From: a virus
IMG/VR virus record: IMGVR_UViG_3300009151_000104
Span: 1 to 49,378 of that record
Length of the DNA stretch: 49,378 bases
Reading direction: 5' to 3' (one strand)
Position numbers and translations under genes: made by a program. Below the pieces are notes generated by a model. The model was not told the DNA's origin and did not search any database. It saw nothing but the letters and a program-made list of their open reading frames with translations. This document shows positions 5,679 through 31,732 of this stretch, piece by piece (within the stretch, counting starts at the first letter, position 1; each line of letters starts with the position of its first letter).

Positions 5679-6593
5679 TTACGAGGTTGGGAACGAGCCG
5701 TAGATTGCACGCCAGTTGTAGTAACCAAACGAGTAACGCTCATAGCCCTTAACAAGCAAGTTGTCAGTGACAAAATCAACTTGCATGTCTGTTTCAAACT
5801 TAATGCGCTCCATATACGCCAAGCCATCGATGTTGGTGAGGAGGAACCAAGCGTAGGTCGAGGTCAAGAAGTCGTTGACCATGTAGCCTTCGCTGAGTCC
5901 GCCTGCCGTCATCATGATCGCGTTGACGTCGTTATCTGCAGTACCGGGACGCAATTCAGTCTTCGTAAGACGGATTGCAACTGGTTCCAACTGCGGAGGA
6001 ACGATGAGCTTGCGGCCACGGGCAAAGATCTTCAAGCCAGCCTGATCTTTGAAGTTAGCACGGATTGCAATCATTGCATTCAGTAGCGTAGCTTCGTTCA
6101 AATCAACCTGAGTTGTAGGCGTATTAGCAACCGTACCACCGTCAATTGGATGCGCCGTGGAGCAAAGTGCTACACCGTCACCGCCAACTGCTGCGTTGTA
6201 CGTCTGTGCCGTATTAAGAATGTTCGCGCCATAAATTTCCTTAGTCTGCTGGAATGATTCCACCAAGCCAAGGTTAGAAGGCATGAACTGGGTCTTGTAG
6301 AGGTTATCGTCGATTGCCTTACGGGTAATCGCGTAACCCAGAGCAATTTCAGTATGCTCTTGGTTCCAAACGAAACGCTCACCAGCATTCGAATCAAAAG
6401 CCGTCTGACCACCTTCGGTCTTGAGCTGTGCAAGGCCGAGGTAACGCATTTCAGCAGTGCGTTCCAGAGCCATCTTTGATTCGTGCTTCGTGAAGATCTT
6501 GTCGTACTGCGACGAGATCATTTCGTACTTGCCTTCAACGCCACGGAGGCCGGGGAGGAGAAGGTCTCTGATCTGACTTAGATTAACAGCCAT
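5679..6593 (-). CDS. Major capsid protein, HK97-fold type
   Basis: This 304-residue protein starts with an MAVNLSQIRDLLLPGLR helix. It contains a YEMISSQYDKIF segment and ends with YSFGYYNWRAIYGS. The layout matches the short major head proteins of the Mu gpT-like/HK97-fold group found in SU10-like podoviruses. A helix near ITRKAIDDNLY would be the spine helix, and the A-domain strands lie in the C-terminal half. It is preceded by a ribosome site (AAGGAG). It lies downstream of a putative scaffold and next to accessory capsid genes, the usual order. No protease gene is visible and the N-terminus has no long delta domain, so maturation may not need cleavage. Confidence 0.8.
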   Translation of the reverse strand: MAVNLSQIRDLLLPGLRGVEGKYEMISSQYDKIFTKHESKMALERTAEMRYLGLAQLKTEGGQTAFDSNAGERFVWNQEHTEIALGYAITRKAIDDNLYKTQFMPSNLGLVESFQQTKEIYGANILNTAQTYNAAVGGDGVALCSTAHPIDGGTVANTPTTQVDLNEATLLNAMIAIRANFKDQAGLKIFARGRKLIVPPQLEPVAIRLTKTELRPGTADNDVNAIMMTAGGLSEGYMVNDFLTSTYAWFLLTNIDGLAYMERIKFETDMQVDFVTDNLLVKGYERYSFGYYNWRAIYGSFPTS

Positions 6594-6606
6594 AACACCT
6601 TACTCC

Positions 6607-21625: not shown

Positions 21626-21718
21626 CCTCTTGAGCTAAGCAGCCCTACCAAGGAATTAAGTCAAGAGAGATCCCTCTTGAGCTAAGCAAGCTTGGCTTGG
21701 CCTTAAGTCATGAGAGAT
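21626..21718. repeat. Two imperfect 46-base direct repeats
   Basis: Both copies start with cctcttgagctaagca (21626-21641 and 21673-21688) and end with a ttaagtca-gagagat block (ending 21671 and 21718). Copy 1 begins CTCTTGA and ends TCAAGAG, so it can form a stem; copy 2 has lost one base of this pairing. The copies are nearly adjacent. Confidence 0.65.
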
Positions 21719-22082
21719 GGTGTCCGTTGCCCACACAATAGGTAGACACCCAACAAAGCCTCACACGGAATCAACATGAGGGGGCAACAGGATACGCCGC
21801 CAGCGACAGACCACCAGCCATTGTCCTGCATTAGCGTAGACTACTCAAGCTACAAGAACACCCAAGCGAGGCAGTCATGTAGCAAAGCAGGCATTGCCCT
21901 ACAAGGAATATTTTGTCGGGCAAGAAATAACACAGGGGTATTAGTTAAGCTGAGATATAGAGGTAAGTGATAGGGGGATGTTAGTTGGGGGGAATTTTGG
22001 GGATGTCTGTAGAGTGCAAGGGCGTATCCGTATCCGGCCTTCGCCTATATGCGGGGGGTGCCGCCACCCCCACCGTACCCCA

Positions 22083-22145
22083 TTTGTTCACGTTTTGTTC
22101 ACGGTATGTTCTATGCGTTCCCGGTTTGTTCACGGTTTGTTCCAA
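22083..22145. repeat. GTTC iteron array with 11-base period
   Basis: TTTGTTCACG occurs exactly at 22083, 22094 and 22125, with variants at 22105, 22114 and 22136. The GTTC cores begin at 22086, 22097, 22108, 22117, 22128 and 22139. Four neighbouring pairs have the exact form GTTC-N7-GTTC, the alphaproteobacterial LexA box, and one pair has N5. The array may be a regulator site or a set of initiator iterons. Confidence 0.7.
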
Positions 22146-22174
22146 GCACAAGTATAAAACAAGCTTAACAATAA

Positions 22175-22218
22175 AAGCTTAAGTATAGATCAAGCTTAAG
22201 TATGTAAAGCTTAAGTAT
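22175..22218. repeat. Triple AAGCTTAAGTAT repeat
   Basis: The 12-mer AAGCTTAAGTAT occurs at 22175, 22192 and 22207, spaced 17 and 15 bases, in the gap after the small terminase gene. Each combines the overlapping palindromes AAGCTT and CTTAAG. It belongs to the AAGCTT-rich island described separately. Confidence 0.75.
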
Positions 22219-22261
22219 TGTTATAGTCGTGCTTGCAATAGCCAAGCTTTAATAGTGAAGC

Positions 22262-22759
22262 TTAAAGATCCTCTGTAGATCCTTCGCCTGTTTCCGGCGT
22301 TGGCAAGGCTAATTGTTCCAGCATGTCTGCTAATTGTTCACGCTGATCATAGTCAAGCTGACCAACATTAATCGGTTGAACGTCAAGCTTACCCGTGACC
22401 TCAATCTGTTGCTTGTCGCTATAGTACTGATTCCACTTACCAATAAGCCTTAGCCTTGTGTCGATCATGGTTCGCTTGTGGGCGGGGTCTATAGTCATGT
22501 CATCAGCTATGCGAATGCAGTCATCAGCAAGATAATGCGTGCCTATTCGTTGCGCGTGTGCGAGATCGTCGGCAAAATCAGGCATTCGCTTTCGCCATGT
22601 CCAGATCGTGTCGAAGCTTGGCATTCCTTCCATTGCGCAAATAGCCGACAATGTGATGCCATTACAAAGCTTTTCGATGATAGCTATTCTTATCTCATCG
22701 CTATAGATCGACGGTCTACCAAGCTTGAGCCTTTCGTGTGGCTCTTTCTTTCTTGTCAT
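22262..22759 (-). CDS. terS: Terminase small subunit, Sf6-like
   Basis: This 165-residue protein starts with a basic segment, then LGRPSIYSDEIRIAIIEKL and GITLSAICAMEGMPSFDTIWTW. This is the helix-turn-helix of the Sf6 gp1-type small terminase, followed by the helical oligomerisation part (FADDLAHAQRIGTHYLADDCIRIADD). It would recognise the packaging site and form a ring that passes DNA to TerL. Unusually, it is about 3.6 kb upstream of terL, with the non-coding region and nine small genes between. The gene includes several AAGCTT motifs. Confidence 0.85.
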   Translation of the reverse strand: MTRKKEPHERLKLGRPSIYSDEIRIAIIEKLCNGITLSAICAMEGMPSFDTIWTWRKRMPDFADDLAHAQRIGTHYLADDCIRIADDMTIDPAHKRTMIDTRLRLIGKWNQYYSDKQQIEVTGKLDVQPINVGQLDYDQREQLADMLEQLALPTPETGEGSTEDL

Positions 22760-22820
22760 GCTTCAAACTCACCTAAGCTTAGCTATGTTGCAAGCCAAGC
22801 TTAGGCAAAGCTTGACTATT

Positions 22821-23069
22821 TTAGACGTTATCGGTTTCTTCGTCTTCGTCGCTTTCGTCTGTTTCATCTTCGTCTGTTTCTTCGTCCATTGCTTGTTCAA
22901 CGTAGTCTAGTGCAGCTTCCAATTGCTCTATTGCTTCATGAATAAAGGCAAGCTGCGTCTCATATGGTAGTAAGTCGAAGTCATCATTCCATTCTGCAAT
23001 TGTTGTGGCCTCGTCATCGTTTACTAGATTAAAGCTTAACATAGCAATCTCACTGTTTAGGTCAGTCAT
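22821..23069 (-). CDS. Small acidic protein
   Basis: This 82-residue protein has a helical body (YETQLAFIHEAIEQLEAALDYVEQ) and a C-terminal tail of about 20 residues made almost wholly of Glu, Asp, Thr and Ser. It is strongly acidic overall, which is a feature of DNA mimics and some anti-restriction proteins, but no family is recognised. It is the first gene leftward of the 23.1-kb intergenic region and lies upstream of terS. Confidence 0.5.
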   Translation of the reverse strand: MTDLNSEIAMLSFNLVNDDEATTIAEWNDDFDLLPYETQLAFIHEAIEQLEAALDYVEQAMDEETDEDETDESDEDEETDNV

Positions 23070-23126
23070 AGCTTTGTCCTTTCTTGGCTTGGAAACAGAT
23101 TAGCCCTACCAATGGATTATTGCAAC

Positions 23127-23178
23127 GGAATGACGCAACATTCCTAGCTATGCTATAATGCATATCAGCTATGCATAG
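23127..23178 (+). promoter_or_regulatory. Early rightward promoter with operator palindrome
   Basis: TATAAT at 23154-23159 is preceded after 18 bases by ATGACG (23130-23135), a -35-like element. That -35 lies inside the inverted repeat GGAATG-acgcaa-CATTCC (23127-23144), which suits a repressor or activator site. A second palindrome, CTATGCATAG, follows at 23169-23178. The first gene downstream starts at 23249. Confidence 0.55.
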
Positions 23179-23248
23179 AAACAAGCTTGACTATAAATCA
23201 CGTATAATTATAAAGCATAGCTATAACAACAAAACGAAAGGGTTTAAC

Positions 23249-23935
23249 ATGCTTTTAGATTATCAAGTCGCCTTAACGCTTAAGTCACGAAACACAAAAA
23301 CTGGACCTATTCCGGTTTCAACAACAACATACTCAACATGTCCAGACGCTTGCCCGTTACGCAAAAATGGTTGTTATGCTGGAAATGGTCCGTTGTTTCT
23401 ATTCTGGCAAAAGGTAACAGATCAAAACGTCGGTGGCTCTTGGCAAGCTTTCGTCGATCAAATTGCCAAGCTTAAAGCCAAGACGTTGTGGCGTCATAAT
23501 CAAGCCGGTGACTTGCCAGGCAATCGCGTTACAATCGACAAGAAAGCTTTGCTTATGTTAGTCAAAGCCAATATCGGCAAGCTTGGCTTTACGTATACGC
23601 ATTATGATGTGATCAATAACAAAACTAATCGCGACTTGGTTAACCAAGCCAATAAAGACGGATTTACGATTAACCTATCTGCCAACAATATCGACCACGC
23701 GGACAAGCTCAAAGCTTTAAACGTCGGACCTGTCGCTGTCGTGCTTCCGTCAAGCGTGCAGGGTAACCAAAAACTAACAACGCCTAACGGTAACAAAATA
23801 GTCGTTTGTCCGGCGACTTATCGCGATGACGTGTCATGTAAGTCATGCGGCTTATGTGCAATGCAACGCGACGCGATTGTAGGCTTTCCAGCTCATGGCG
23901 TACAGGTAAAGCGTGCCGATAAAATCGCAGCATAA
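23249..23935 (+). CDS. Cys-rich phage/plasmid protein, DUF7227-like
   Basis: I place the start at ATG 23249, where GAAAGGG lies six bases upstream; the longer frame from 23171 has no ribosome site and crosses promoter-like DNA. The 228-residue product has an N-terminal CPDACPLRKNGCYA cluster and a central LWRHNQAGDLPGN motif. The motifs FTYTHYD and FTINLSANN follow, and a C-terminal CKSCGLC cluster comes before IVGFPAHG. I recognise this as a family spread over phages and plasmids of proteobacteria (DUF7227), with no known function. The Cys clusters suggest bound metal, perhaps an iron-sulphur centre. It is the first gene after the early promoter. Confidence 0.65.
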   Translation: MLLDYQVALTLKSRNTKTGPIPVSTTTYSTCPDACPLRKNGCYAGNGPLFLFWQKVTDQNVGGSWQAFVDQIAKLKAKTLWRHNQAGDLPGNRVTIDKKALLMLVKANIGKLGFTYTHYDVINNKTNRDLVNQANKDGFTINLSANNIDHADKLKALNVGPVAVVLPSSVQGNQKLTTPNGNKIVVCPATYRDDVSCKSCGLCAMQRDAIVGFPAHGVQVKRADKIAA

Positions 23936-23969
23936 TCAAGTTTAACAATAACAACGAAAGGATAATATC

Positions 23970-24194
23970 ATGCGACCCTTATACACAATAGCACGCGAAA
24001 TTCGAAAAGATTGGACTAAAGTAAACTACGCTGCAAAGCCTTACCTTGACGCTATGTCGAGCTTGTCGTCAATTAACGACGCTTTCTATCACGATAGCGG
24101 AGAGAGCGTTGTGCGTTACTTTTTAAGCAATGCTTCGACGTGGCGTGGCGACATGGCAAAAGCTATCAAAGCCGAGCTTAAAGCTATGCTGTAA
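23970..24194 (+). CDS. Small conserved phage/plasmid protein
   Basis: This 74-residue basic protein has a good ribosome site (AAAGGA). Its C-terminal motif (VVRYFLSNASTWRGDMAKA followed by IKAELKAML) is one I know from small proteins in phages and plasmids of proteobacteria. All are without known function. The N-terminal half is helical (IAREIRKDW, YLDAMSSL). Its neighbours are other small genes spaced like a polycistronic early operon. Confidence 0.6.
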   Translation: MRPLYTIAREIRKDWTKVNYAAKPYLDAMSSLSSINDAFYHDSGESVVRYFLSNASTWRGDMAKAIKAELKAML

Positions 24195-24265
24195 AGCTTA
24201 ACAATATCAAACAACGATAGGCGTCTTTATGATGCCTATCATACCATTAAACAGAGGATAACGCT

Positions 24266-24529
24266 ATGACAAAACAAGTTAAAACGACGCAACGCAAGTC
24301 GACGACGGTATTACGTTGCGCGGCTTTTGCACGCGGCTTTCGTGACGCTAGCAATGGCAAGCCGTTTGACTACACGGCTTTTGAGAACAATCCTAACAAG
24401 CAATGGAACTATGAGCGTGGTCGACAATTCGCTTTCGTATACCTTGGCAAGCTTAAGAATGGCAATCGCTTAGCTTGGCAAGCCGTCGACGCTATGAACC
24501 ACGCAATTCAAAGCCACGCTATACGATGA
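24266..24529 (+). CDS. Small conserved phage protein with YERGRQFA motif
   Basis: This 87-residue basic protein follows a good ribosome site (AGAGGA). The N-terminus is Lys/Thr-rich (MTKQVKTTQRKSTTV). The middle contains FARGFRDASNGKPFDY and WNYERGRQFAFVY, a pattern frequent in small early proteins of phages. Function unknown. Confidence 0.55.
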   Translation: MTKQVKTTQRKSTTVLRCAAFARGFRDASNGKPFDYTAFENNPNKQWNYERGRQFAFVYLGKLKNGNRLAWQAVDAMNHAIQSHAIR

Positions 24530-24541
24530 AAGGGTAACACT

Positions 24542-24646
24542 ATGACTTGGCTCGATACGCTTGACGCGCTTTATGAGGTTTCCGTGTGGTACGTTTTGTT
24601 GATGGCCACATGGGCAGCCTGCGATAAAATATTCGGTGAAAAATAA
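24542..24646 (+). CDS. Tiny membrane protein, 34 residues
   Basis: The frame ATG 24542 to TAA 24646 follows AAAGGG with normal spacing and sits in line with the early genes. The peptide MTWLDTLDALYEVSVWYVLL continues MATWAACDKIFGEK. A stretch of about 18 hydrophobic residues (VSVWYVLLMATWAACD) makes a single transmembrane helix likely. Function unknown; it was found by reading, because of its short length. Confidence 0.5.
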   Translation: MTWLDTLDALYEVSVWYVLLMATWAACDKIFGEK

Positions 24647-24719
24647 GCTTGACTATTGTTTTTAAGCTTGGCAATGTAGCTTTGCTTTTCTAATAGAACA
24701 GCAAAAAGGAGAAAAAAAA

Positions 24720-24923
24720 ATGTATATCGTGAAAGACGTAGACAACGTGTATTCATCCTCGATTATTGCTGAGGTTAATACCTTACCAGAGGCGATTCGG
24801 GCTATTCCGGGTAAAATTTATCTTATCGAAGAAGATGAGCAGTTTCCCGGCCACCACGACGTAATAACATGGCAATGCCGCCAATTTGTAATTGAACCTA
24901 AAAAGGCGAAAAAAAATGTATGA
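24720..24923 (+). CDS. Small hypothetical protein, 67 residues
   Basis: A strong ribosome site (AAGGAG) precedes ATG 24720. The protein starts MYIVKDVDNVYSSSIIAEV and contains PEAIRAIPGKIYLIEEDEQ, with a basic end (KKAKKNV). It looks like a compact alpha/beta domain, not recognised. The 3' end overlaps the next gene by eight bases. Confidence 0.5.
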   Translation: MYIVKDVDNVYSSSIIAEVNTLPEAIRAIPGKIYLIEEDEQFPGHHDVITWQCRQFVIEPKKAKKNV

Positions 24924-25173
24924 TATTGACGATGAAATTGATGAAATGAACCCCTTAGATCCTACTGGCTTGGAATTTGCCTATCCTGCAGGCTCACAAT
25001 ATAGCAGTCGGACACGTCAATTCCGTGTTTTAGGCTTCCGTGACCTCGAACATGCGCAAAAATGGAAAGATGCCTATTATGAACGAGCATGGGGCTATGG
25101 TCCTATTATTCGCATCATTGAGAACGATAAAAAAATTGAGATAACCGTCGACGAAATGACCTCTTGCGATTGA
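24916..25173 (+). CDS. Small hypothetical protein, 85 residues
   Basis: I start at ATG 24916 (MYDIDDEIDEMNPLD) because AAAGGCG lies at the right distance; a longer frame from 24892 would overlap the previous gene more. The N-terminus is acidic. The C-terminal two thirds (FRVLGFRDLEHAQKWKDAYY, IIRIIENDKKIEITV) look like a small alpha/beta domain. Not recognised. Confidence 0.5.
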   Translation: MYDIDDEIDEMNPLDPTGLEFAYPAGSQYSSRTRQFRVLGFRDLEHAQKWKDAYYERAWGYGPIIRIIENDKKIEITVDEMTSCD

Positions 25174-25229
25174 CAAGCTTAGCAAGCTTTGCTACTGATT
25201 TGACACCAACAACACTAATGGAGAAAAAA

Positions 25230-25559
25230 ATGTCTATTATCCCGACACTTGATATCTATTCCCTAAGCGATGCTGATCTCGTTGATGAGGCAGCCAAGCT
25301 TGATTTGACTATTAAAGCTTTGACGAAAAAGCTTGATGAGGCCAAATCATGGATACGTGCACGGCAGCTGGATGAGATCTACGGCACTAATTTTAAGGCA
25401 GTCATCTCGACGCCTAGCATCCGGTGGACACTGGACACTGATCGCGTCAAGAAAGAAATGGGCGAGACATGGTACACAGAGCGTTGTAAGATATCGCAGC
25501 CCTCGCCTGCCGTGTCCTTCAAGCCTTACATGACCCTCGACCAGATCAAAATCGCATGA
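25230..25559 (+). CDS. Small helical protein, 109 residues
   Basis: The start ATG 25230 has GGAG upstream; the longer frame from 25164 overlaps the previous gene and lacks a ribosome site. The protein has a coiled helix (DEAAKLDLTIKALTKKL) and a C-terminal domain with YGTNFKAVISTPSIRW and FKPYMTLDQIKIA. The general plan (coil plus small domain with a YGT...K motif) resembles small phage proteins that accompany recombination genes. Not firmly recognised. Confidence 0.5.
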   Translation: MSIIPTLDIYSLSDADLVDEAAKLDLTIKALTKKLDEAKSWIRARQLDEIYGTNFKAVISTPSIRWTLDTDRVKKEMGETWYTERCKISQPSPAVSFKPYMTLDQIKIA

Positions 25560-25702
25560 TCTTACCTTGGAAAAAAAAGATCTCACGCGACATTACGGTG
25601 CCGCGTGTTCGCACTTGGTTAATAGCCAAGTTTAAAGTGGTACAATCCAACCCAGCAGATTTAACCTGCGTTTTTGTAAAGGATAAGAAAAATGACGGAT
25701 AA
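25556..25702 (+). CDS. Small basic protein, 48 residues, overlapping both neighbours
   Basis: The frame runs from an ATG overlapping the previous stop (ATGA) to a TAA eleven bases inside the next gene. The peptide starts MILPWKKKISRDITVPRVR and ends FVKDKKNDG. It is the only frame filling the 132-base gap between two genes, and its coupling fits the operon. An inverted repeat ACTTGG-N7-CCAAGT (25613-25631) lies within it, which could instead mean that the gap is regulatory. Confidence 0.45.
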   Translation: MILPWKKKISRDITVPRVRTWLIAKFKVVQSNPADLTCVFVKDKKNDG

Positions 25703-25979
25703 ACCAGAAAAAATAAAGATGATTGACGTAAGCATAAGTGTACCAGAAAAAATTGGTAAAGTTATATGGGTGCTAGGCGAAACGGGCATCTATTCGACGG
25801 ATGAGTTTGATGAACTGGATCCGCCGGAACAATTGGAAAAAATTAACAATATCGTAGAAACATTCTCATCGCTCCGATATCGCGCTATGGTGGCTATGAT
25901 GATGGCAACAGTTGAAACGCTTCACGGCATCGTCGACGAGCTGTACGAAGATGAAGGCCACGGGGAGGCAATCCACTAA
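25692..25979 (+). CDS. Small acidic protein, 95 residues
   Basis: The start ATG 25692 overlaps the previous frame and follows a GGATAAG sequence. The protein has a strand-like segment (GKVIWVLGETGIYSTDE) and a long helix with an MVAMMMATVETLHGIVDELY segment, ending acidic. Its TAA shares a base with the start of the next gene (TAATG). Not recognised. Confidence 0.5.
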   Translation: MTDKPEKIKMIDVSISVPEKIGKVIWVLGETGIYSTDEFDELDPPEQLEKINNIVETFSSLRYRAMVAMMMATVETLHGIVDELYEDEGHGEAIH

Positions 25980-26272
25980 TGGCTATCCGTATCGCATCAA
26001 CAGAAACAGAAACCCCTAAACCTAAGCTTGTTAAGAAAGCAGCCCCACCAAAAGAAAAGTTACCGATTGAAATTACCCAAAACCAATCAGTAACCCCGGT
26101 TCGTGGCAAGCGTGGCTTTGGATCTATGGAAACCGAAAAACGCCGCCTAGCGCAATCCAAGGGCGGCGCAAGCGTGGCTAGAGAAAAACGGCACTTTGCT
26201 GCTAACCCTGAGAAAGCACGAGAAGCAGGGCGTAAAGGTGGGCAGGCGAAAAAAAGAAAGGCAGAGCAATGA
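25979..26272 (+). CDS. KGG-motif (YciG-like) protein
   Basis: This 97-residue basic protein has a C-terminal region with FGSMETEKRRLAQSKGG and then NPEKAREAGRKGGQAKKRK. This is the KGG repeat of stress-induced proteins such as YciG (GF.SM....AS.GG...AREAGRKGG). The N-terminal 40 residues are low-complexity Lys/Pro/Thr. Such proteins are bacterial in origin and occur here and there in phages; their role is unclear. It is coupled to both neighbours. Confidence 0.65.
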   Translation: MAIRIASTETETPKPKLVKKAAPPKEKLPIEITQNQSVTPVRGKRGFGSMETEKRRLAQSKGGASVAREKRHFAANPEKAREAGRKGGQAKKRKAEQ

Positions 26273-26550
26273 CGGGATTTACCAGCAAAAAGAAAAGCGC
26301 CGAGGTCCGTTGGCTTGGACCTTATGCGCCACATGAACGCCATGCCGATGACACAACCGTAGCCGATTTAGTTCGGCTGCGGTGGGAGAATAATTACATA
26401 AAAGAAAGTTTAGACTTTTATAAAAAACAGCATCTCGACATGATGGATCTGATAGAATCGTTAACCCGGCAGCTTGTTGAGGCTAAAAACTGCGCATGCC
26501 GTAAGCGTGATAAAGAACTTGAGCAAATGTTCGAGGAGATGTCTAAATGA
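26269..26550 (+). CDS. Small coiled-coil protein, 93 residues
   Basis: The start at ATG 26269 overlaps the previous stop (ATGA), and its stop overlaps the gcrA-like gene. The protein begins with a basic stretch (MTGFTSKKKSAEVRW) and continues as a helix (NYIKESLDFYKKQHLDMMDL). A CAC motif lies near the end. No family recognised. It may be a structural partner of a neighbour, by coupling only. Confidence 0.45.
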   Translation: MTGFTSKKKSAEVRWLGPYAPHERHADDTTVADLVRLRWENNYIKESLDFYKKQHLDMMDLIESLTRQLVEAKNCACRKRDKELEQMFEEMSK

Positions 26551-27086
26551 TGCTATTACCGTGGTCAACTCGCGATAAAGCTATTCTCATTGAGATGTGG
26601 CAGGCAGGCGCAAGCGCGGTAGCTATTGCTCATAAGCTTGGCAATGGCAGAACCCGCAATTCAATCCTTGGCTTTGTTCATAGGTTAAGGAGAAAAAATC
26701 CTGAGATACAATTACGAAATGAAAATACGCGAAGAACGCCTAACCCAGACGGAATAAAGATTGTTAGGACAAGACCCCAACCAAAGAAAAAAGAACAGCC
26801 TATCGTTCAAGTAAACTTGTTTACACCTATTGCAGAAGAACCCGCACCAGATGGCGGCGTGCCGTATTTTGAAACACGGCTATTCCAATGCAAGTACATC
26901 TTAAATACCAGCAAAGACCCACATAATATCCGGTGCTGCGGTGGTGTGGTGTATCGAACCACATCATGGTGCCGTAAACATTATGATGAGGTATTTACAG
27001 GACGTATTTACCCCGGAACACAGGTCGGCCATTTATCATCTGGCAAAACTCAGGTGGCATCAAAATTCCAGTTTCGTCGAATGTAA
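26547..27086 (+). CDS. gcrA: GcrA-family cell-cycle regulator
   Basis: This 179-residue protein has the two ends of the GcrA family. The N-terminal helix-turn-helix reads WSTRDKAILIEMWQAGASAVA and then LGNGRTRNSILGFVHRLRR. The C-terminal Cys/His part reads QCKYILNTSKDPHNIRCCGG and SWCRKHYDEVF, with Cys115, Cys130/131, Cys142 and His145. In Caulobacter and relatives, GcrA binds sigma-70 RNA polymerase and activates promoters carrying CcrM-methylated GANTC sites. A phage copy may steer host transcription towards phage promoters or hold the cell in a suitable phase. The family is alphaproteobacterial, which points to the host. The 3' end overlaps the metallophosphoesterase gene on the other strand by 92 bases. 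Confidence 0.8.
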   Translation: MMLLPWSTRDKAILIEMWQAGASAVAIAHKLGNGRTRNSILGFVHRLRRKNPEIQLRNENTRRTPNPDGIKIVRTRPQPKKKEQPIVQVNLFTPIAEEPAPDGGVPYFETRLFQCKYILNTSKDPHNIRCCGGVVYRTTSWCRKHYDEVFTGRIYPGTQVGHLSSGKTQVASKFQFRRM

Positions 27087-27942
27087 GCACTGCAAAACCT
27101 TGATGGGCACGGTTTGGCGCGCCTTCACCATATTGGAAAGCTTTATGGTTAGGGTCGCCAAGCATGCCTGTTTCTACACCCCAATGCGATCCACGGCGGT
27201 TTCTAACAGCTGTCATTTGCTGGGCATGGGTATGATTCGTTACTGTCGTCCAACCCGACACTTGCGCATTATTATATGCCGCATGAATGCCAGCACGAAA
27301 CCGATGGCGAATTTCAACATCATCATTTAAATGAAATGCATAGCAAAATTCCCACATTGGGAAACGATTTGCTAAGCGCCCTGCGTAATCTTCTAATTCG
27401 CTGGCTTGGTTAGCAAGGTAATTGTCTACCCGCATGTCGTGGTTGCCGATGGTAAAAATACGCCGCTCACATTTAGGCAGCTGATCCATCCAAACTTTGG
27501 CAGCGTCTATTTCAGCCGATACCTTTGGTGCTGCAGATCCTAACGTAGAACCGTGCCGGGATACTCTGGCACCGTCTATGATGTCGCCATTGAGACAAAT
27601 CATTTTTGGCTTAATCTGTTTAGCTACCTTTACAAATGCCTTCATCATGATGGTATCAACGCCGGGCCAAATATGGGCGTCACCGCCTATAATGATACAC
27701 CCATCAACTAGTTCGCCTGTTAAAACTTGAGGATATAACCATTGCGCTGCTAATCCATCGTTGCCTTTTTCGTATGCTTCCCACATCTCTGGGAATCTTC
27801 GCTGTATCATGTCCAATCTTGCTGTGATCGTCGACGCTGGCATGCTCATTACACGCCCTGTTGCTCTCACAACTTTATTTTGTCGGTAATATTCTTTTAG
27901 TGTTTCTTCTAACACTTCTTTGGTTAATGCAGGCATCGCCAT
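26995..27942 (-). CDS. Metallophosphoesterase with N-terminal HTH-like region
   Basis: I place the start at ATG 27942, with GAGG nine bases upstream; a TTG start at 27999 would run into the operator repeat. The 315-residue protein has an N-terminal helical part (VLEETLKEYYRQ, RVMSMPASTITARLDM) like a helix-turn-helix. The calcineurin-like phosphoesterase motifs follow: GGDAH (86-90), NGDIIDG (118-124), GNHD (166-169), and a distal NHTHAQQM. It probably hydrolyses phosphodiester or phosphomonoester bonds; SbcD and phage phosphoesterases belong here. It may act on DNA ends or RNA in replication. The gene ends inside the gcrA-like gene on the opposite strand. Confidence 0.75.
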   Translation of the reverse strand: MAMPALTKEVLEETLKEYYRQNKVVRATGRVMSMPASTITARLDMIQRRFPEMWEAYEKGNDGLAAQWLYPQVLTGELVDGCIIIGGDAHIWPGVDTIMMKAFVKVAKQIKPKMICLNGDIIDGARVSRHGSTLGSAAPKVSAEIDAAKVWMDQLPKCERRIFTIGNHDMRVDNYLANQASELEDYAGRLANRFPMWEFCYAFHLNDDVEIRHRFRAGIHAAYNNAQVSGWTTVTNHTHAQQMTAVRNRRGSHWGVETGMLGDPNHKAFQYGEGAPNRAHQGFAVLTFDETGILMPPEFCQMINGRPVFRGKYVL

Positions 27943-28026: not shown

Positions 28027-28302
28027 ATGACTGCAGAAGAATTTAAAATCTTTGCTCGATACGTTAAGGAAGAGTTTGGAGCCAATGATAGCGAGCTTGG
28101 CAGGGCAATGGGTTTTGCTCGGCAAACCATAAACTTATGGAAGCGCACAGGATGCCCACCCTACGCTGATCTTGTAGCAGCAGCTATTGTTGCTGGCTTG
28201 GATCCTTGGAAGCCCGGCCCAGAACATCTGCCCAATCCTGCCCTACGACAGGCGGCATCAGCACCTGAACTTGAACATGATGCTGAAGAGTTAAACGCTT
28301 AG
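28027..28302 (+). CDS. Small HTH DNA-binding protein, Cro/XRE-like
   Basis: This 91-residue protein has a helix-turn-helix: EFKIFARYVKEEFGANDSELG, then RAMGFARQTINLWKRTG, and a following PPYADLVAAAIVAGLDPW typical of small phage or proteobacterial regulators that end near this point. The last 30 residues (after residue 61) are antisense to the end of the primase gene and may be an unselected extension. It starts just after the inverted repeat at 27990-28014, so autoregulation is plausible. Its partner may be the divergent metallophosphoesterase gene. Confidence 0.6.
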   Translation: MTAEEFKIFARYVKEEFGANDSELGRAMGFARQTINLWKRTGCPPYADLVAAAIVAGLDPWKPGPEHLPNPALRQAASAPELEHDAEELNA

Positions 28303-31177: not shown

Positions 31178-31527
31178 GTATCTTCCTCAACGCCATAAAT
31201 GGTGACTACCATAGGTATACCATGTTCACCCCATTCGGCAGCTATGGCTTGGCAATCCGAATCATCATCTACAACTTTAGTCTTAACCAATAAGTCACTG
31301 GTAGATTTTAGTAAGTTATCCAGATCCCGACGTCTTTTGTCAGGTTTAGTGGCTGATATGTGAATGATATACCGCCCAAGTATTTGAGCCTTGGTCTGCG
31401 CTTTGACCATCCAACCAGCTTCTTCAAGCCAAGCCATGTATTCAGGGGAACGATACATACGACCACCTTTGCCTACCTTCCATAAACGGTTCGTGCTGGG
31501 GGCCAATGGTAACTCAAGCCGAATCAT
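31144..31527 (-). CDS. rusA: RusA-like Holliday junction resolvase
   Basis: This 127-residue protein has the RusA pattern: APSTNRLWKVGKGGRMYRS at the N-terminus and then RRRDLDNLLKSTSDLL with VVDDDS (acidic residues Asp68, Asp70, Asp78 and Asp88). RusA cuts four-way junctions symmetrically and in phages resolves recombination intermediates before packaging. It overlaps the DnaA-like gene by 34 bases. Together with ERF and Gp157-like genes it makes a recombination module. Confidence 0.8.
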   Translation of the reverse strand: MIRLELPLAPSTNRLWKVGKGGRMYRSPEYMAWLEEAGWMVKAQTKAQILGRYIIHISATKPDKRRRDLDNLLKSTSDLLVKTKVVDDDSDCQAIAAEWGEHGIPMVVTIYGVEEDTWTESRKLLMN

Positions 31528-31732
31528 TCTGTTTCCAATCCAGAAAAAAGTGGTGGAGTGTAATCTCTTTGTTGGTGGCCTGTAATATACGAACCATCAA
31601 CGCTAAAGATGGGTCTTGAACTCCCCGCTCAATTCTAGAAATAGATGACGCAGTTGTTCCCGCCATTTTAGCTAGATCAACCAAAACGACGTTATTTTTC
31701 TTACGCCATTGACGTAATGGATGCTCATTCAT
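31514..31732 (-). CDS. XRE-family transcription regulator
   Basis: This 72-residue protein is a helix-turn-helix of the XRE/Cro type: LRQWRKKNNVVLVDLAKMAG, then TTASSISRIERGVQDPS and LALMVRILQAT. It has no extra domain, so it is more like Cro than CI. It overlaps both neighbours, which suggests that it is made with the resolvase. Its probable operator is in the 31.97-32.08-kb divergent region. Confidence 0.8.
   Translation of the reverse strand: MNEHPLRQWRKKNNVVLVDLAKMAGTTASSISRIERGVQDPSLALMVRILQATNKEITLHHFFLDWKQNDSA

What the first reader, a model, noticed from the sequence alone, without database searches (positions are those of the whole stretch)
21688..26639. AAGCTT hexamer island in the early/packaging region
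About 32 AAGCTT copies in 5 kb against about 18 in the other 44 kb (counts by eye). Chance gives about one per 4 kb. They fall in both non-coding DNA and genes, in different reading frames, and cross terS, the DUF7227-like gene and several small genes, so codon preference alone does not explain them. Related longer forms recur: AAGCTTAAGTAT three times, AAGCTTGACTAT three times. This looks like a DNA-level signal: sites for a phage or host protein, a protective methylation target, an architectural signal, or the mark of a segment brought in from a genome with a different hexamer bias.
Basis: seen in the sequence. Interest (0 to 1): 0.8.

Follow-up and report, generated by a model that had tools for sequence, protein, structure and literature searches.

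The report
AAGCTT protein-site cloud beside terminase gene
A freshwater phage and its relatives carry a dense cloud of short DNA sites (core AAGCTT) around a tandem array next to the DNA-packaging gene, most likely docking sites for an unidentified phage protein, and a relative that has purged every AGCT from its genome keeps the same cloud with the core changed to AAGCAT.

Summary
In detail: 32 AAGCTT lie in 21,688-26,639, 20 in the other 44.4 kb; a third-order Markov model predicts 2.9 for the island. It is the most over-represented hexamer in the island's coding DNA after shuffling synonymous codons (17 vs 4.5 expected); the arms show none. AAGCTT is the core of a longer directional site, about AAGCWTSASYATA. 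It is tandemly repeated in non-coding DNA directly 3' of terS in at least eight related phages, in a conserved composite region (hairpin, chain of GTTCN7GTTC boxes, iterons), and scattered through the neighbouring genes. One syntenic relative (53.5 kb) has no AGCT tetranucleotide at all (116 expected); its array and neighbouring genes use AAGCATGA instead. That argues against an AAGCTT methylation target and for a sequence-specific DNA-binding protein. Its identity is not shown (candidates: GcrA-like protein, small HTH-like protein, TerS), nor is its role. A host-type hexamer bias remains a live rival for the in-gene sites: one alphaproteobacterium is AAGCTT-rich genome-wide, and relative G013 shows the genic excess without the array.

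The parts
22161..22263 (+). Tandem iteron array of 6 AAGCTT sites (22161, 22175, 22192, 22207, 22244, 22258), spacing 14-17 and 37 bp, mostly AAGCTTAAGTAT / AAGCTTAACAAT, directly 3' of terS
   Evidence: syntenic arrays in G001, G002, G003, G014, G021, G022, G023, L086
22086..22142 (+). Four GTTCN7GTTC boxes (22086, 22097, 22117, 22128): GTTC at 11-bp period, the alphaproteobacterial LexA-box pattern
   Evidence: pattern as given in PMC3091678
22051..22075 (.). Conserved G/C-rich inverted repeat GCGGGGGGTGCCGCCACCCCCACC
   Evidence: conserved across the relatives, but the fold is only weakly better than shuffles (z -1.3)
22262..22759 (-). terS (Sf6-type terminase small subunit); carries in-gene AAGCTT at 22385, 22614, 22667, 22721
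   Evidence: PF20901 3e-23, phrog_1482, Sf6 gp1 structures
22775..22813 (+). Intergenic sites 22775, 22797, 22808 between the 82-aa gene and terS
22821..23069 (-). Small acidic protein gene upstream of terS, AAGCTT at 23032
23171..23935 (+). DUF7227 / GP88-like gene with 6 AAGCTT (23183, 23445, 23468, 23544, 23579, 23712); 23183 is an extended site just 5' of the likely start
   Evidence: PF23872 1.2e-87; sites
24194..24199 (+). Intergenic site AAGCTTAACAAT
24266..24529 (+). Small gene with an in-frame AAGCTT (Lys-Leu) at 24449
24645..24669 (+). Intergenic pair AAGCTTGACTAT / AAGCTTGGCAAT at 24645 and 24664
25175..25334 (+). Five sites (25175, 25184, 25296, 25315, 25329) in the leader and first codons of the 109-aa gene
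26547..27086 (+). GcrA-like DNA-binding protein gene, candidate reader of the sites; AAGCTT at 26634
   Evidence: PF07750 1.5e-8; GcrA structures E 3e-4; found in array-bearing genomes G001, G002, G021, G004 and not in G006, G007, G009
28027..28302 (+). Small protein that looks HTH-like by eye; second candidate reader with the same co-occurrence
   Evidence: no family or PDB hit, so the HTH reading rests on sequence inspection only

Best explanation
The island is a cloud of binding sites for one sequence-specific, probably phage-encoded DNA-binding protein. SHOWN: AAGCTT is the conserved core of a longer oriented site (array consensus in relatives GT-AAGCWT-SASCAT-A, window form AAGCTT-RASWAT). 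The sites are tandemly arrayed directly 3' of terS inside a composite non-coding region shared by the group, and further copies of the core, some with the extension, are over-represented in the adjacent terS and early genes. Sites are kept above background during divergence. INFERRED: the array is the high-affinity nucleation point, on which the protein assembles a nucleoprotein complex, and the scattered cores are weaker auxiliary sites that extend or hold the complex over about 5 kb. The most likely task is to mark the origin/packaging-initiation locus and gate the divergent early and late transcription that starts there. The LexA-type GTTC chain beside the array would feed host DNA-damage state into the same switch. 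The protein and the task are not demonstrated.
For: Extended motif AAGCWTVASYA outside the arrays: 28 copies in about 28 kb of island against 8 in about 189 kb elsewhere, summed over seven genomes; the arrays have 43 in one orientation and 6 in the other, with terS orientation as reference. Array period 21-22 bp in relatives. G001: 0 AGCT in 53.5 kb (116 expected), array of AAGCATGACYATACG, and in-gene AAGCAT 12 vs 4.2 +- 1.7 (AAGCTT 0), whereas AAGCAT is not enriched in the islands of WIN, G021, G022 or G013. Genic AAGCTT excess after synonymous shuffle with the array left out: WIN 20/5.2, G004 15/5.0, L086 10/2.2, G022 13/4.3, G002 6/2.4; rank 1 or 2 of about 1,100-1,400 hexamers in L086 and G022, AAGCAT rank 2 in G001. 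Island genes are richest in the words of their own array for WIN, G001 and G022. Retention of AAGCTT between 86-90% identical relatives: 0.66-0.82 over both directions, against 0.47-0.62 for composition-matched hexamers. Flanks of non-coding island sites match a PWM trained only on other phages' arrays (array p 0.0002, other intergenic p 0.004); sites in the arms do not. The extended site occurs only as scattered copies (at most 2 per genome) in 17 of 190 alphaproteobacterial genomes.
Against: In-gene sites of the window show the flank signal only weakly (p 0.053), so most are core-only half-sites. G013 has the genic AAGCTT excess (9 vs 2.2) and the GTTC chain but no AAGCWT array. G021 and G003 show weak genic AAGCTT excess (p 0.07-0.08), and the own-array rule fails for G002, G003 and G021. 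AAGCAT is mildly above codon expectation throughout these genomes. The four closest records share ancestry, so they are not independent. The reader protein is unknown. ORFs in relatives were called mechanically.
Confidence: 0.6

Rival explanations
1. Packaging-initiation (pac/cosB-like) array: the 3'-of-terS repeats are TerS sites, and the helically spaced sites inside terS belong to the same packaging signal; the outer sites are by-products.
For: Array abuts terS in every relative; TerS is Sf6 type, family of headful terminases; sites 22614-22808 are spaced 53, 54, 54, 22, 11 bp, phase signal at 10.8 bp with p 0.016 in the window and 0.002 in L086.
Against: G021 and G022 have nearly identical arrays although their TerS proteins differ strongly (64% vs 40% identity to the window's). 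Sites spread up to 4 kb away. No phasing of genic sites in the other relatives.
Confidence: 0.2
2. Stoperator/operator-like immunity system: a repressor binds oriented sites in intergenic gaps of the early region and blocks transcription.
For: Oriented 12-13-bp sites in most small intergenic gaps of the early region; site words drift between related phages while staying fairly uniform within one genome, as in cluster A mycobacteriophages (PMC6550527).
Against: More than half of the island sites lie inside genes (17 of 32); the densest cluster is a tandem array in a non-coding hub; no integrase or clear lysogeny repressor was recognised among the genes examined; sites are confined to about 5 kb.
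Confidence: 0.15
3. Host-type hexamer bias (HIP-like): the early genes carry the oligomer preference of an AAGCTT-rich alphaproteobacterial host or donor.
For: Some alphaproteobacterial genomes are AAGCTT-rich; G049 has 82 in 47.8 kb vs 14.5 expected and 76 vs 28 +- 4.4 in coding DNA after synonymous shuffle. G013 shows the genic excess without the array. HIP1 in cyanobacteria is a precedent for iterated palindromes, linked to methyltransferases (PMC4390886).
Against: Island density (6.5 per kb) is well above G049's 1.7 per kb; flanks differ (G049 favours +1 T, the island +1 G/A and little C); the rest of the same phage shows no excess; the core becomes AAGCAT together with the array in G001.
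Confidence: 0.2
4. AAGCTT is a target of a protective or regulatory methyltransferase.
For: AAGCTT is a palindrome; AGCT is completely avoided in relative G001, which suggests that an enzyme reading AGCT exists in that phage's environment.
Against: G001 keeps the island with AAGCAT, which contains no AGCT; no methyltransferase was found among the window genes examined; a restriction target would be avoided, not clustered.
Confidence: 0.04

Closest known systems
Stoperators of cluster A mycobacteriophages (L5, Bxb1, Trixie)
   Same: Up to about 30 oriented sites of about 13 bp in one phage genome; site words drift between related phages (PMC6550527)
   Different: Stoperators are spread along the genome by transcription direction; here sites are packed in 5 kb, mostly inside genes, around a tandem array beside terS; no repressor identified
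Iteron arrays of phage and plasmid replication origins (lambda O, plasmid Rep; general knowledge)
   Same: Direct repeats at 22-bp period in relatives, uniform orientation, in a conserved non-coding region
   Different: No origin shown; the window array has 14-17-bp spacing; only a DnaA-C-domain protein, no canonical Rep or O, was recognised; core sites spill into genes
P1 pac hexanucleotide repeats / lambda cosB (from general knowledge, not tested)
   Same: Repeated short sites in or near the small-terminase gene
   Different: P1 hexamers are Dam sites within about 160 bp; here about 5 kb, and no cleavage site known
HIP1 of cyanobacteria (PMC4390886)
   Same: Over-represented palindrome in coding and non-coding DNA
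   Different: HIP1 is genome-wide; here local, oriented through its extension, and replaced by a non-palindrome in G001
Alphaproteobacterial LexA box GTTCN7GTTC (PMC3091678)
   Same: Exact pattern in the adjacent chain
   Different: 3-5 overlapping or consecutive boxes at 11-bp period, in several relatives with an inverted second chain; LexA binding not tested

Membership tests
Stoperator system | Oriented, near-identical 12-14-bp sites repeated in one phage | tested here: met
   Arrays 43:6 orientation; extended sites island-specific
Stoperator system | Sites in intergenic regions across the genome, aligned with transcription | tested here: not met
   32 of 52 in 5 kb; 17 of those 32 inside genes
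Stoperator system | Cognate phage repressor | tested here: inconclusive
   Small XRE protein at 31514-31732; no binding data
Iteron replication origin | Tandem directional repeats in conserved non-coding DNA | tested here: met
Iteron replication origin | Initiator gene beside the repeats / strand-composition switch | tested here: inconclusive
   DnaA-C protein lies 8 kb away; no clear skew switch at the array; DnaA box only at 23979
pac/cos packaging site | Adjacent to terS and conserved | tested here: met
pac/cos packaging site | TerS binding and DNA cleavage there | not testable with these tools
   no genome-end or binding data
HIP-type palindrome | Genome-wide over-representation | tested here: not met
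   Arms at or below expectation
LexA box chain | GTTCN7GTTC in an alphaproteobacterial host | tested here: inconclusive
   Pattern met; host inferred only from the LexA-box pattern and the GcrA-like gene

The most novel reading that the evidence does not exclude
A new kind of phage DNA-organising element: a terS-linked nucleation array plus a several-kb cloud of core sites selected within coding sequence, read by a phage protein that builds a spreading or looping complex (centromere- or packaging-hub-like). Its site word co-evolves array and genes together, as when AAGCTT was replaced by AAGCAT in a phage under total AGCT exclusion.
Probability: 0.3. Interest if true: 0.78.

Novelty: new variant of a known kind. 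Interest (0 to 1): 0.6.

Why it matters
Binding sites selected inside coding DNA over kilobases are rarely demonstrable. The AGCT-free relative is a natural experiment that separates 'the hexamer matters' from 'a recognised site matters'. If confirmed, the system would identify a new packaging/replication or regulatory hub in a phage group with no DNA match in the isolate collection searched. It also places that hub beside what looks like a chain of host SOS boxes, and shows how restriction avoidance can reshape a regulatory vocabulary without destroying it.

Tried and rejected
Chance and composition: rejected. Codon usage: rejected by synonymous shuffles. RNA families and tRNA genes: none. 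Known phage DNA relatives: no match. Host via genome contigs with a TerL profile: only four hits, in MAGs or a Sphingomonas contig, host not settled. Array as host chromosomal motif: not found. Strand-skew evidence for an origin: none. DnaA-box cluster: none. Helical phasing as a general rule: only in the window, L086 and some arrays. A literature search for a P1-type pac comparison gave nothing usable. TerS-array covariation does not support TerS as sole reader.
Full report
The window has 52 AAGCTT, 32 of them in 21,688-26,639. Markov models trained on the rest of the window predict 2-3 for the island and 18-26 for the rest, where 20 are seen. Shuffling synonymous codons gene by gene leaves 17 coding sites against 4.45 +- 1.67, and AAGCTT is the first of all hexamers in the island's genes; the left and right arms show no excess. 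Another 15 sites sit in only about 1.5 kb of non-coding DNA.

What it is. The window is an IMG/VR record, a P22/Sf6-like podovirus by gene content: Sf6-type TerS, portal, ejection protein, ERF. Its host is probably an alphaproteobacterium, judged from a GcrA-like gene and from GTTCN7GTTC boxes. Syntenic relatives were found among IMG/VR metagenome records. In eight of them the non-coding DNA 3' of terS has the same composite layout: a G/C-rich inverted repeat, a chain of GTTC words at 11-bp period (weakly formed in G021), and a tandem array of oriented sites with consensus GTAAGCWTSASCATA, spaced 21-22 bp in relatives and 14-17 bp in the window. The window's AAGCTTGACTAT is the same site as the relatives' AAGCTTGACCATA.

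The natural experiment. Relative G001 (53.5 kb, TerL 88% identical, syntenic throughout) has not one AGCT, where 116 are expected. Its array reads AAGCATGACYATACG, and AAGCAT is the second most enriched hexamer in its island genes (12 vs 4.2), although AAGCAT is not enriched in the islands of WIN, G021, G022 or G013. The core changed in array and genes together. This is hard to explain by methylation of AAGCTT or by a mere hexamer bias, and is what a recognised site would do.

Selection and specificity. Between the window, L086 and G004 (86-90% identical), AAGCTT is retained at 0.66-0.82 against 0.47-0.62 for composition-matched hexamers, and both losses and gains are seen. Outside the arrays the extended motif occurs 28 times in about 28 kb of island against 8 times in about 189 kb elsewhere, summed over seven genomes. 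Flanks of intergenic island sites match a matrix trained on other phages; in-gene sites do so only marginally (p 0.053) and arm sites not at all.

Who reads it. Proteins found in the array-bearing genomes G001, G002, G021 and G004 but not in G006, G007 and G009 include the GcrA-like protein, the 28027 gene product, a KGG-motif protein and the 24720 gene product. TerS is adjacent, but two relatives with almost identical arrays have strongly different TerS. I therefore put the GcrA-like and 28027 proteins first, TerS third; this is inference.

What does not fit. G013 has the genic AAGCTT excess (9 vs 2.2) and the GTTC chain but no AAGCWT array. G021 and G003 have weak genic excess, and the rule that genes mirror their own array fails for G002, G003 and G021. 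One alphaproteobacterial genome (G049, not known to be the host) is AAGCTT-rich throughout, beyond codon use. So a bias component in the in-gene sites remains possible.

Comparison. It works like a mixture of an iteron array and a stoperator set; it fails the genome-wide, intergenic definition of stoperators and the genome-wide definition of HIP palindromes, and origin or packaging function is untested. Hence 'new variant of a known kind', with moderate interest and a clear set of binding and end-mapping experiments.

Noticed in passing
window 22086-22142; also G001, G002, G003, G013, G014, G022, G023, L086: Chain of GTTC words at 11-bp period making 3-5 GTTCN7GTTC boxes (alphaproteobacterial LexA pattern), in several relatives followed by an inverted GAAC chain; above the 0.1-1.7 boxes expected per record.
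   Followed up: partly
G013 (L105), between the two GTTC/GAAC chains at about 6565-6606: TGTTTCATGTGAAACA, one base off the bacterial parS consensus TGTTTCACGTGAAACA (consensus from memory): possible recruitment of host ParB.
   Followed up: no
G001 (L088-L090), whole 53.5 kb: Complete absence of AGCT (0 vs 116 expected), an unusually clean restriction-avoidance signature; L087 similarly has 0 GATC (22 expected) and L113 0 TCGA (10 expected).
   Followed up: partly
window 24500-27500: A second local cluster: AAAAAA/GAAAAA (22 of 31 AAAAAA in 3 kb), apparently ribosome-binding leaders and Lys codons of the small early genes.
   Followed up: no
window 24266-24529: 87-aa early protein resembling ribosome modulation factor by eye (RGFRDASNGKPFDY...NPNKQWNYERGRQFA); no Pfam hit.
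   Followed up: no
window 26547-27086: Phage-borne GcrA homologue (Pfam and PDB hits), suggesting manipulation of alphaproteobacterial cell-cycle transcription.
   Followed up: partly
G049 (L255-L257): An alphaproteobacterial genome (43% GC) with AAGCTT at 5.6 times expectation and 2.7 times after synonymous shuffling, also rich in TCCGGA and GCCGGC: a possible HIP-like system.
   Followed up: partly
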